This document shows, piece after piece, positions 43,112 through 47,279 of a DNA stretch of 64,000 bases. Origin of the DNA: Armatimonadota bacterium (GTDB taxonomy: Bacteria > Armatimonadota > Fimbriimonadia > Fimbriimonadales > Fimbriimonadaceae); contig JAFDWU010000008.1 of NCBI GenBank assembly GCA_018268315.1, forward strand, positions 62,001 to 126,000. The letters run 5' to 3'. The notes under the pieces are model-generated. The model made no database searches. It was not told where the DNA came from and saw only the letters and a list, made by a program, of their open reading frames with translations. Position 1 is the stretch's first letter; each line of letters starts with the position of its first letter. A program made the position numbers and the translations under genes.

Positions 43112-45799
43112 CTAGGCGTTTGCGTCATGCTCAAGCGCTAACGAAAGAAATTCAGCACCATTCACATGCGAATTAAGCTGCGACCTAGAAGGCAAATCAG
43201 ATCTTTCGAACTTGCGTTTGCCACTAATGGAGCAGGTGTGCACCAACTTCTTCATTGACCGCGTGTTGTGGAAGTACTCGGGGACCAGCAGAAAAGCTCG
43301 CGTAACGCCCTCGGAAACATAGAACCCTCCCTCTTTTGACTTAAGCGACGGATACTCGCGGAGAAAGTTTCGCAGAGTCAGCATTCTCTGTAGGATGAAG
43401 AGTGTGTCATCTGGACCTACCTTGTTCAACCCAACGACAGAAAGTCTTCCGTCGAATCGAGACTCAAAGTCCCTCCCTTTCCTCTTCCTAAGTTCCTCCC
43501 TAACCGTATCTGGAATGTTATCAGCTGGCAACGAGGCATCCCGACAAGCGCGACTAAAGACATCGGCATTTTCAAATCGTGAGCCAACAAATATGAAGAC
43601 GGCGGACCCGACCTTCTGCATCATATCCCCGGTCAAGAACAAACCTTCCTCCATTGGTGAAAGCAAGAACGGCAACCACCCAAATTCACGGTCGTGTAGC
43701 GGAGAATCAAATTCGTCAAATACAACAACGGGAATCTTGCCGCTAAGTCCTTGATTTCTTACGCCCTGCATCATGTTTCCAAGCTGGGCAATATCCTGAA
43801 CCTGGCTCAAGTTGATTGGCACCGTGTCTCCACATAGATCACCCAGCACTTTGCGCGTGATCATCCTGGTTGCCGTCGTTTTTCCAGCACCCGGTGCGCC
43901 AAAGCAAAGCAGGTTAAGAGGTGTACCATCCCTTAAGCTGAGCCTACTTTGAATATGCCGAGATCGATACTCTGCGATTCGCGTCTCAATGTCACGCAGA
44001 CCCTCAATCTCCTCACGCCTCACGGCAAAGTAATCTGGACCATCTCCAGTTACGCGGTAATGTGGGATTGAACTAAGTATTGCCTCTAGGTAATCGTCGC
44101 CCCCCTTCAGTGTGTCTCGTGCAATTTCCTCAACTTTTGCCTCTTCGTTAACCAGCGCATAATTTGAGATTGTCCAGGGATTCCGCCTAAACCTATCCAG
44201 TTCAGGATCAAGACTTGGCTTACTCCTCTTCAACTCCTTCTCGTAGTCATAATGCGTCTGGAGAATTCGAGCGACAAAGTCCTTGTCGGGACTAAATGCT
44301 GCGAGGGGAGCATATCTTCTTCGACAATCTTGATCCAGTACTCCGCTTCCAACACCGGTACTCGCTGTTGCCCCTTTTGCTTTCTCCCAAACCAGGGAAT
44401 AGAAGTATCCGTCCTCACGGTAATGATCCATGTCCCGTATGAAATCTATTTCGCCCTTGGCGACTTCCAGCGCCACGCTCCTAAAGTGGTCGTTAAACCC
44501 CTGCGAATTCACGTAATGAACCCAACTCTCATCATTACCCTTCTCGAAATTAAGCGTTGCCAGGTCAAGTCCCGTTCGAGTCCATGCGACGATGTGATCA
44601 GAAAGCCGTGCTTTCGGTACCCGAGCCGACGATTTAGCTACATATGAAGCAAGCCGGTATGCAAGATAGGCTGTAAGTACGCTAACAGTCCCCGGAACAT
44701 ATCCTTCGGTAGGCGAGACCGTCCTATCAGACGAATTGGCTCTAAATAACAAGGAGTATCGCTTCGATCGGTTGTTTTCGAGTTTCCTAATAAGCTGTTT
44801 GCTTGGCTCGGCCTCCCAAATTTCTTCAAGCACTTTGTGTATGGAGAGGCGGAGATCGATTGTCGGCTTACCTACACGAATGCTGTGATACGTGTCGCGA
44901 ATCTTTTCGAAGAGATGCTTATTCTCTCTATCGTTGGTTGGCCGAGCTCTCACGCACGCCCCATTGTGGCCAAAGGTGACGACCAGGTACTTTGCCAGGC
45001 GCCGGAATGCGAATCTGGAACTTCGTCCCTTTGAAGTTATCAAGTCTTGCAGGGTGCGCTCCCACGACCGACCAGAATTGATTACAATGTCATCTTCTCG
45101 GAGAGCAGCTCCCTCAGTGACGCATATAACATGCTCTGAGCGCTCCTGAAGCCAGTAAAAAAGCCAAAGGGGCCAGTGGGGAGCGACGCTGTCACCGGGC
45201 CTGAATTTGAAGATTATGTAAGCATCCTTCTTAAGCTCACCTAGCCAAGAAGTTCCTGCAAAATCATGGCCATTCCACCAAGGGTCATCCAAAAATTGGA
45301 GGGAATGCCCTTCGAAATTAATTATTAGGATATCGATTTCCTTGAAGTCGAGCGTGGCCGGGTTCCCGTTTGCGTCCTCGATCGAGGGTGGGCCCTCAAG
45401 AGGCTTCGTATTGGGCTTCAATGGATCAAGGTTGCTTATCGCAAGCGTCTGGACTGCCCGCAAGCTCTTGTCAACCTTGGCCCACTTACGCTCAACCCGC
45501 GGCAACCACGTTGAATTTGAGAAGGAAAGATCGGCAATCGGGGGCACAACCGCCGAATAGACCTCGATTTCGGAACCCACGGGTGCAGGCTGAGTCACGT
45601 CAATCCCAGATTCTGCCTTCAAAAGGCTCACTATCACTTCGCGAATGAATGGCACTCCGCCATATCTCCGCATCGTTTTTGCCTTGGGCACGTGGATATC
45701 GCGATGACTTGCCGTGCTGTGGTCAGAATCAAGAAGAACTGCCTCCTCCAGGATTACGTCCCCCCAACAGAGTATCTTTACTTTCCGACCGGCAACCAT
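43112..45799 (-). CDS. PfkB-like/AAA+ ATPase fusion, accessory gene of unknown function
   Basis: 895 residues. Residues 1-390 are sugar-kinase (PfkB/ribokinase)-like: a WGD motif near residue 12, DILIINFEG at 156-164, YLVVTFGHNGACV at 271-283 and a GYVPGTVSVLTAYLAYRLAS block near 366-385 where the catalytic Asp of ribokinases is missing. Residues 400-600 are helical and unassigned. A AAA+ core follows: Walker A GAPGAGKT at 634-641, Walker B VVVFDEFD at 691-698, then SAVFIFVGSRF. Composition is lower in GC than neighbours. TTGAAA-N18-TAAGCT lies directly upstream of the ATG. The function is unknown. Confidence 0.78.
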   Translation of the reverse strand: MVAGRKVKILCWGDVILEEAVLLDSDHSTASHRDIHVPKAKTMRRYGGVPFIREVIVSLLKAESGIDVTQPAPVGSEIEVYSAVVPPIADLSFSNSTWLPRVERKWAKVDKSLRAVQTLAISNLDPLKPNTKPLEGPPSIEDANGNPATLDFKEIDILIINFEGHSLQFLDDPWWNGHDFAGTSWLGELKKDAYIIFKFRPGDSVAPHWPLWLFYWLQERSEHVICVTEGAALREDDIVINSGRSWERTLQDLITSKGRSSRFAFRRLAKYLVVTFGHNGACVRARPTNDRENKHLFEKIRDTYHSIRVGKPTIDLRLSIHKVLEEIWEAEPSKQLIRKLENNRSKRYSLLFRANSSDRTVSPTEGYVPGTVSVLTAYLAYRLASYVAKSSARVPKARLSDHIVAWTRTGLDLATLNFEKGNDESWVHYVNSQGFNDHFRSVALEVAKGEIDFIRDMDHYREDGYFYSLVWEKAKGATASTGVGSGVLDQDCRRRYAPLAAFSPDKDFVARILQTHYDYEKELKRSKPSLDPELDRFRRNPWTISNYALVNEEAKVEEIARDTLKGGDDYLEAILSSIPHYRVTGDGPDYFAVRREEIEGLRDIETRIAEYRSRHIQSRLSLRDGTPLNLLCFGAPGAGKTTATRMITRKVLGDLCGDTVPINLSQVQDIAQLGNMMQGVRNQGLSGKIPVVVFDEFDSPLHDREFGWLPFLLSPMEEGLFLTGDMMQKVGSAVFIFVGSRFENADVFSRACRDASLPADNIPDTVREELRKRKGRDFESRFDGRLSVVGLNKVGPDDTLFILQRMLTLRNFLREYPSLKSKEGGFYVSEGVTRAFLLVPEYFHNTRSMKKLVHTCSISGKRKFERSDLPSRSQLNSHVNGAEFLSLALEHDANA

Positions 45800-45892: not shown

Positions 45893-47194
45893 TTAGGCTT
45901 TGTTTTCCGCCGTGCGCGGCCCCTCGGCGCCAAGCAACTGCTCTGGCGTTTCGCTGTCTCTGGCATCCACGATGCGCTTGGGCAGGAAGTAAACCAGTGG
46001 AATCGTGATGAAGGTGGTCAGCGTGTTGAGGATGATCAGCATCGCCAACGACACCGTCTTCTGATCCAGCAAGTGCGAACCGAACTTGTCCGTTCCAAAA
46101 AGGGCCAGGTTGCGCACGCTCATCATTAGCGAAAATCCAAGTCCCTCATTGCCCTTGGGAGTCGCCCGAATCGCGAGGTCCATCAGGGCAAGCTCAGCCA
46201 GCGTGTAACCCCAACCATTGAACGTGTCGATGATCTGCGCGATCGAGTAAGAGTTGTAGGCAAGATAGAAGATGTTGGCCGCCGTGCCTGCAAAAAGGCA
46301 GACGTAAAGCAAATGGCGCAGTGAGAACTTCTTGCAGACGAAGCCGTACATAAGCGCCGCAACGATTCCACCTGCGCCGCTTAGGAACGTTAGAAAGCCC
46401 TGCTGCTGAGTATTCAGCTTGAGAACATCTTGCTGAAGATAGAAGATTCCGGTGGAGATTCCCGGGGCGAGATAGAAAAGCAGCATGAGCCCGGCCGCCC
46501 CCCACATCGTGCCCGCTCGGGCCAAGTTATTTAGCTGCCGACCGGCGTTTTCCAGAACCTCCGCGCTCGACGTCTTACGGCGCTGCTCAATAAGGAATAG
46601 GATCGTAATTGGCGCGACAAGGAACATGATTCCGCCGCACATGTAGCCGGTGACCGCCAACGGAATGGAGGCGAGGTAGCCACCTGCCGGACCCTGAATA
46701 AGGGTGCAGACTTGCTGAACGAAATTTCGAACTGAGGTCAGCCGCCCGGAACCTGACGTGGCCTGCGCAACTTCCACCATATAGCCGCCAATAACCGTGC
46801 TGGCAATGACCATGAAGGTGTTGATGAAGAGGCAAATCCAAAGGAGGGTGCTGTACTGGTGAGGTGCGTTTGCCAGGGCAATCCAGCCTACAACTGCCAG
46901 CACCGTGCTAATAAGAATGTAAGCGCGACGGCGGGTGCCAAATATCGGGAAGGCATCCGTGAAGACTCCTGCGAAAGGCTTCAGATACCAGGGGAAACCT
47001 ATCCAAAAGAAGAAGCCAGCGTTTCCTTCACGTCCAACGTGGAGCTCGTTCTTCAATAGGTTCTGCAAAGGGATGCGCGCAAGAACCTGCGGCTGAGCGA
47101 GAGTGGTGGCAAAAACGCCGACGATGATGATGATTGCAGCGAAGAGCATCGCATTGGACTGCGGCTCTTTTCGGGGATATTCAACTGTGGCCAT
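45893..47194 (-). CDS. MFS-type transporter (folate-biopterin/BT1-like)
   Basis: 433 residues with about twelve membrane helices. Segments FPWYLKPFAGVFTDAFPIFGTRRRAYIL and GGYMVEVAQATSGSGRLTSVRN resemble the BT1 family of folate-biopterin transporters within the major facilitator superfamily. The substrate cannot be deduced. ATG 47194 is used; a start 11 codons upstream gives a non-matching N-terminus. It follows the AAA+ gene and is flanked by a lytic transglycosylase. Confidence 0.8.
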   Translation of the reverse strand: MATVEYPRKEPQSNAMLFAAIIIIVGVFATTLAQPQVLARIPLQNLLKNELHVGREGNAGFFFWIGFPWYLKPFAGVFTDAFPIFGTRRRAYILISTVLAVVGWIALANAPHQYSTLLWICLFINTFMVIASTVIGGYMVEVAQATSGSGRLTSVRNFVQQVCTLIQGPAGGYLASIPLAVTGYMCGGIMFLVAPITILFLIEQRRKTSSAEVLENAGRQLNNLARAGTMWGAAGLMLLFYLAPGISTGIFYLQQDVLKLNTQQQGFLTFLSGAGGIVAALMYGFVCKKFSLRHLLYVCLFAGTAANIFYLAYNSYSIAQIIDTFNGWGYTLAELALMDLAIRATPKGNEGLGFSLMMSVRNLALFGTDKFGSHLLDQKTVSLAMLIILNTLTTFITIPLVYFLPKRIVDARDSETPEQLLGAEGPRTAENKA

Positions 47195-47279
47195 ACGGTT
47201 AACCGGCAAACAAATTAGAAGCGGCAAAGATTACACTAGGTTACGGGGAATTCGCGCTACAAGCTGAAAAATAGCTTCA

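What the first reader, a model, noticed from the sequence alone, without database searches (positions are those of the whole stretch)
43112..45799. Lone PfkB-like/AAA+ protein in a lower-GC island: candidate new defence or signalling system
A single 895-residue gene combines a sugar-kinase-like N-terminus, apparently without the catalytic Asp, with a long helical middle and a AAA+ core. Its base composition differs: one hand-counted 60-base line inside (44701) is 47% GC and one in the gene before it (42301) is 67%. Housekeeping genes flank it. A sensor domain joined to an ATPase in an isolated, foreign-looking gene is what many single-gene immune proteins look like, but no effector is recognised.
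Basis: partly seen in the sequence, partly recalled or inferred. Interest (0 to 1): 0.7.

Follow-up and report, generated by a model that had tools for sequence, protein, structure and literature searches.

The report
Pseudo-sugar-kinase AAA+ protein, orphan immune-family member
A lone, probably acquired bacterial gene encodes a ring-type ATPase fused to a dead sugar-kinase-like domain; it belongs to an unnamed family whose other members often sit beside antiviral-type signalling genes, although this member has lost or never had those partners.

Summary
The gene is real. It encodes 895 aa on the minus strand, with GC 0.503 against 0.578±0.025 and the lowest GC3 of the window's larger genes. 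AlphaFold plus structure search confirm a ribokinase/PfkB fold at residues 6-453 (Z 18.6). The helix-start position expected to hold the PfkB catalytic Asp is Thr here and is never Asp in 98 relatives. Residues 551-892 are an intact AAA+ module. The family is unnamed in NCBIfam and PADLOC; Pfam sees only generic AAA and RyR. It is sporadic (17 of 291 genomes of the phylum) but spans many phyla and archaea (193 relatives in one scan). Most relatives also carry a RyR domain. Genes for SLOG-like, TIR, TrkA-RyR or DUF4062/NACHT-type proteins crowd within 2 kb of them, at about 9 times the density further out. The window protein is a diverged, RyR-less member with no such partner, in a genome without any detectable RyR, so function for this copy is inferred. 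Best reading: a sensor-gated AAA+ remodeller from an ADP-ribose-type conflict network, here working alone. Rivals: a private stress ATPase or a stranded remnant.

The parts
43112..45799 (-). whole gene, 895-aa pseudo-PfkB/AAA+ protein
   Evidence: ORF; relatives; low GC
44441..45784 (-). residues 6-453: ribokinase/PfkB-fold domain, predicted non-catalytic sensor
   Evidence: AlphaFold; Foldseek E about 1e-6; VIA-align Z 18.6
44687..44704 (-). residues 366-371 GYVPGT, counterpart of the PfkB GxGD motif; T371 in place of the catalytic Asp
   Evidence: helix 371-389 starts here; no Asp in 98 relatives
44150..44440 (-). residues 454-550: window-specific, low-confidence helical linker
   Evidence: pLDDT below 50 at 452-512 and 525-549
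43124..44149 (-). residues 551-892: AAA+ module of the pre-sensor-1 beta-hairpin type
   Evidence: separate model pLDDT 89.1, pTM 0.87; nearest NtrC1/FleQ and Clp NBD2, Z 15-16
43877..43900 (-). Walker A GAPGAGKT, residues 634-641
   Evidence: G634, P636, G639, K640 invariant
43706..43729 (-). Walker B VVVFDEFD, residues 691-698
   Evidence: D695, E696, D698 invariant; family DNA pattern rests on it
45893..47227 (-). upstream same-strand MFS-type transporter, 93 bp away; neighbour, not shown to be a partner
   Evidence: in 6 of 61 relatives

Best explanation
A horizontally acquired, stand-alone member of an unnamed family of pseudo-PfkB/AAA+ proteins. Proposed working: the dead ribokinase-fold domain no longer phosphorylates but still binds a nucleoside-, sugar- or nucleotide-type ligand (inferred). 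Binding gates a ring-forming AAA+ ATPase (ATPase motifs shown; ring and activity inferred), which remodels a target protein (inferred). In most relatives a RyR domain and a SLOG-like partner add sensing of ADP-ribose-type signals, with TIR proteins as likely signal makers and TrkA-RyR membrane proteins or NACHT proteins as likely outputs (neighbourhood shown; pathway inferred). The window copy lacks RyR and partners, so its pseudo-PfkB domain and private linker would be the only sensor.
For: PfkB fold Z 18.6; no Asp at the catalytic position in 98 relatives; AAA+ hallmarks K640, D695, E696, R781, R847 invariant, window included, although the window branch is long (2.94), which argues that the ATPase is under constraint. 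RyR in relatives. TIR, DUF4062-NACHT, SLATT, TrkA_N-RyR next door. These labels run at 20.6 per 100 kb within 2 kb of the gene against about 2.3 beyond; 37 of 79 loci have one. SLOG-like gene immediately downstream in 19 of the 20 loci that have it. RyR proteins bind or cleave cADPR signals of Thoeris defence (PMC13232231). Mobility: a G005 relative in an element with serine recombinase, RadC and a TraG-like gene, two plasmids, low GC.
Against: No partner or RyR at this locus, and no RyR detected in this genome (four positive-control genomes gave hits). About half of the loci are lone. Six Chlorobiaceae loci share a conserved neighbourhood. Several residues near-invariant elsewhere in the PfkB domain are changed in the window (D162F, D232A, S241N), so its ligand pocket may be altered or lost. 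PADLOC has no model for the family. No phage or expression data.
Confidence: 0.5

Rival explanations
1. A lone regulatory or stress AAA+ remodeller controlled by a metabolite bound to the pseudo-PfkB domain, with no role in immunity; the TIR/SLOG/RyR loci are one specialised branch.
For: Lone copies in Clostridium, Desulfosporosinus, Streptomyces, Methanosarcina and the window; shared neighbourhood in six Chlorobiaceae loci; nearest AAA+ folds are NtrC-type regulators and Clp unfoldases.
Against: Sporadic distribution, low GC, plasmid and mobile-element copies, strong enrichment of conflict-type genes near relatives.
Confidence: 0.27
2. A stranded remnant: one gene of a former multi-gene system, its RyR and partners lost, now drifting.
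For: Longest real branch in the tree (2.94), changed PfkB residues, no partners.
Against: Full-length frame and every invariant AAA+ residue kept; genomes of three other RyR-less relatives in the same family (G005, G170, G143) also lack RyR, so RyR absence looks like a sub-branch trait and not local decay.
Confidence: 0.15
3. An active sugar or nucleoside kinase with an ATPase tail.
For: Ribokinase fold and conserved GD and GG motifs.
Against: No Asp at the catalytic position in any of 98 relatives.
Confidence: 0.03

Closest known systems
RyR domain-containing proteins of bacteria (e.g. WP_264051538.1, Methylobacterium plasmid pA)
   Same: Same PfkB-like plus AAA+ order; homologous over the AAA+ part (31.5% identity).
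   Different: That protein has a C-terminal RyR domain (PF02026, E 1e-14); the window protein ends after the AAA+ module.
Thoeris and other TIR/SLOG ADP-ribose signalling systems
   Same: Relatives lie beside TIR and SLOG-like genes and carry RyR, a domain shown to bind cADPR signals (PMC13232231).
   Different: No TIR, SLOG, SIR2 or RyR in or beside the window gene; no ThsA or ThsB here.
Ribokinase/PfkB family
   Same: Fold of residues 6-453 (Z 18.6).
   Different: Catalytic Asp replaced; fused to AAA+; no PfkB hit by Pfam or by profile against the PDB.
NtrC-type sigma-54 activators and Clp/ClpB NBD2 AAA+ domains
   Same: Nearest solved folds of the AAA+ module, Z 15-16.
   Different: Only 13-17% identity; no receiver, DNA-binding or ClpP-docking part seen.
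TIR/SLOG/RyR nucleotide-centric conflict network of Burroughs et al. 2015 (recalled; paper not held)
   Same: Same set of neighbour domains.
   Different: I could not check whether this pseudo-PfkB/AAA+ family was described there.

Membership tests
pseudo-PfkB/AAA+ (RyR) family | AAA+ module with invariant Walker A, [FW]DE[FY]D Walker B, GxDFxSR and RSM motifs | tested here: met
   family-specific DNA pattern hits once per member locus
pseudo-PfkB/AAA+ (RyR) family | N-terminal ribokinase-fold domain without the catalytic Asp | tested here: met
pseudo-PfkB/AAA+ (RyR) family | C-terminal RyR domain (common, not universal) | tested here: not met
   protein ends 3 residues after the AAA+ part; no RyR in the genome
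active PfkB kinase | GxGD catalytic Asp | tested here: not met
   T371; position placed by motif and helix start, not by a residue-level structural alignment
Thoeris or other TIR/SLOG signalling system | TIR signal maker in the same locus | tested here: not met
   neighbours; the genome's two TIR genes lie on other contigs
Thoeris or other TIR/SLOG signalling system | sensor for an ADP-ribose signal (SLOG, RyR, macro) | tested here: inconclusive
   no SLOG, RyR or macro hit; a pseudo-PfkB domain could bind one, untested
anti-phage defence system | protection against phage | not testable with these tools
   needs a plaque assay
NtrC-type activator | GAFTGA sigma-54 loop and DNA-binding domain | tested here: not met
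   absent from the translation; no such Pfam hit

The most novel reading that the evidence does not exclude
The family is an undescribed ADP-ribose-signalling immune system in which a dead ribokinase domain is a new sensor for a TIR- or phage-derived nucleotide and drives an AAA+ ring; the RyR-less branch, with the window protein, is a single-gene version.
Probability: 0.2. Interest if true: 0.75.

Novelty: new variant of a known kind. Interest (0 to 1): 0.45.

Why it matters
It ties an unnamed, widely scattered protein family (bacteria and archaea) to the TIR/SLOG/RyR signalling network. It offers a testable idea: a pseudo-sugar-kinase used as a small-molecule sensor on an AAA+ machine. The RyR-less branch makes a minimal construct for asking what that domain binds.

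Tried and rejected
Pfam, NCBIfam and PADLOC on the window protein gave only weak generic AAA/Orc/Lon/IetA-type P-loop matches. Phage records: no match. Viral contigs: a single hit, contig IMGVR_UViG_3300048597_000653, so phage spread is not supported. Empty-site comparison failed: no relative keeps the local gene order and none of the relatives searched is in the same genus. Profile-profile comparison with PfkB enzymes and profile search of the PDB did not recover PfkB by sequence; only structure did. Repeats, tRNA and promoter scans around the gene gave no insertion boundary. The tree row L135_16247 was a wrongly chosen ORF and was left out of all counts. Viral structure library: only weak AAA matches. 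Two paper searches found no description of this pseudo-PfkB/AAA+ family, but most subscription papers are not held.

Full report
Observation. The ORF at 43112-45799 (minus) is an uninterrupted 895-aa frame. It is the clear low-GC feature in its stretch of the window: 1-kb GC falls to about 0.50 across it. Among 43 ORFs over 200 aa its GC3 is the lowest (0.529 against 0.693±0.044). It lies 93 bp downstream of a same-strand MFS-type transporter and convergent with an Fe-S oxidoreductase gene. The oxidoreductase is in all 61 relatives searched, the transporter in 6.

Anatomy. AlphaFold with 60 sequences gives pTM 0.76. Residues 6-453 match ribokinase-family enzymes (Foldseek E about 1e-6; VIA-align Z 18.6 over 283 residues). 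In PfkB enzymes the catalytic Asp ends a GxGD motif at the start of a helix (established knowledge). Here the motif is GYVPGT and T371 starts helix 371-389. The column holds Tyr, Leu, Lys, Thr and others but no Asp in 98 relatives. I placed this position by motif order and helix start; sequence profiles could not align it to true PfkB enzymes. Residues 551-892 modelled alone reach pLDDT 89 and match NtrC1, FleQ and Clp NBD2 (Z 15-16). A strand pair at 720-729 precedes the sensor-1 strand, as in that AAA+ superclade. Walker A 634-641, Walker B 691-698, R781 and R847 are kept in every relative and in the window. Residues 454-550 are poorly predicted and private to this protein.

Distribution. 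One copy in the genome; 2 of 61 near relatives; 17 of 291 genomes of the phylum, which is Armatimonadota because L065 and L107 hold the same sequence and L107 is named so. Two plasmids, no phage record, one viral-collection contig. One scan of 84,980 species genomes confirmed 193 relatives in Clostridia, Chlorobiaceae, Chloroflexota, Acidobacteriota, Streptomyces, Methanosarcina and others. The window protein is a long branch, best identity about 41% over the AAA+ part, weakly placed with two genomes of its own family.

Context of relatives. Most full-length relatives continue past the AAA+ module into RyR (PF02026), some also into SLOG-type domains (YAcAr matches). Neighbours include TIR_2, DUF4062 with NACHT or AAA_16 and TPR or WD40 repeats, SLATT/DUF4231, TrkA_N-RyR and a SLOG-like protein beginning VGVTGHR. 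The SLOG assignment of the last is by motif, by similarity to the fused domains and by a PADLOC ShosA match (E 6e-5), not by a Pfam family above cut-off. Density of these four labels is 20.6 per 100 kb in the first 2 kb and 17 genes in 725 kb beyond, about 9-fold. The control is internal (near against far) and the 79 loci are not independent. 37 of 79 loci have at least one label; the rest are lone, among them most clostridial, streptomycete and methanosarcinal copies, and six Chlorobiaceae loci share neighbours.

The RyR-less branch. The genomes of the window, G005, G170 and G143 contain no detectable RyR, while four genomes with RyR-type members gave strong RyR hits in the same search. So the absence is a trait of a sub-branch, not a failed search. 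These proteins are longer before the AAA+ module (587-820 residues against about 430), which may hold a replacement sensor; untested. G005's copy lies in an element with a serine recombinase, RadC, an Mrr-type nuclease gene and a TraG-like gene.

Mechanism. Shown: predicted fold of both parts, missing catalytic Asp, intact ATPase motifs, family context. Inferred: ligand binding by the pseudo-kinase, ring formation, remodelling of a target, a link to ADP-ribose signals. RyR domains bind and can cleave 2'/3'-cADPR in phage proteins that counter Thoeris (PMC13232231); SLOG and TIR are parts of the same chemistry (PMC9503650; PMC7159879). For the window copy the conflict role is an extrapolation from relatives that have what it lacks.

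Verdict. The family looks like an unnamed arm of a known signalling network; the window gene itself is an orphan member of unproven function.

Noticed in passing
L006:11897-13522 (minus): 541-aa gene upstream of the G005 relative with a Nudix-like stretch (GGSAEYY...RELTEEL) and no Pfam hit; possible partner of the RyR-less branch.
   Followed up: partly
L144:2240-10000, also L172, L106, L177, L178: Recurrent order pseudo-PfkB-AAA-RyR, SLOG-like, TrkA-RyR (TIR follows in L106, L144 and L172; upstream in L177): a candidate multi-gene signalling system.
   Followed up: partly
L069, L070 (Armatimonadota): Family members that end in SLOG-like repeats in place of RyR, beside TIR-NACHT-TPR and WD40-repeat proteins (seen at L069).
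   Followed up: partly
L179, L180 (own genome, contigs C3 and C7): Two TIR-domain genes elsewhere in the genome; possible partners in trans.
   Followed up: no
L080/L098: Only viral-collection contig with a member (117,624 bp); an ArdC-like gene nearby (by eye) suggests a plasmid or integrative element, not a phage.
   Followed up: no
L138, L145, L148, L158, L161, L164: Chlorobiaceae copies share one neighbourhood (a QueD-like gene, by eye, and RadC-like gene downstream), suggesting vertical inheritance there.
   Followed up: partly
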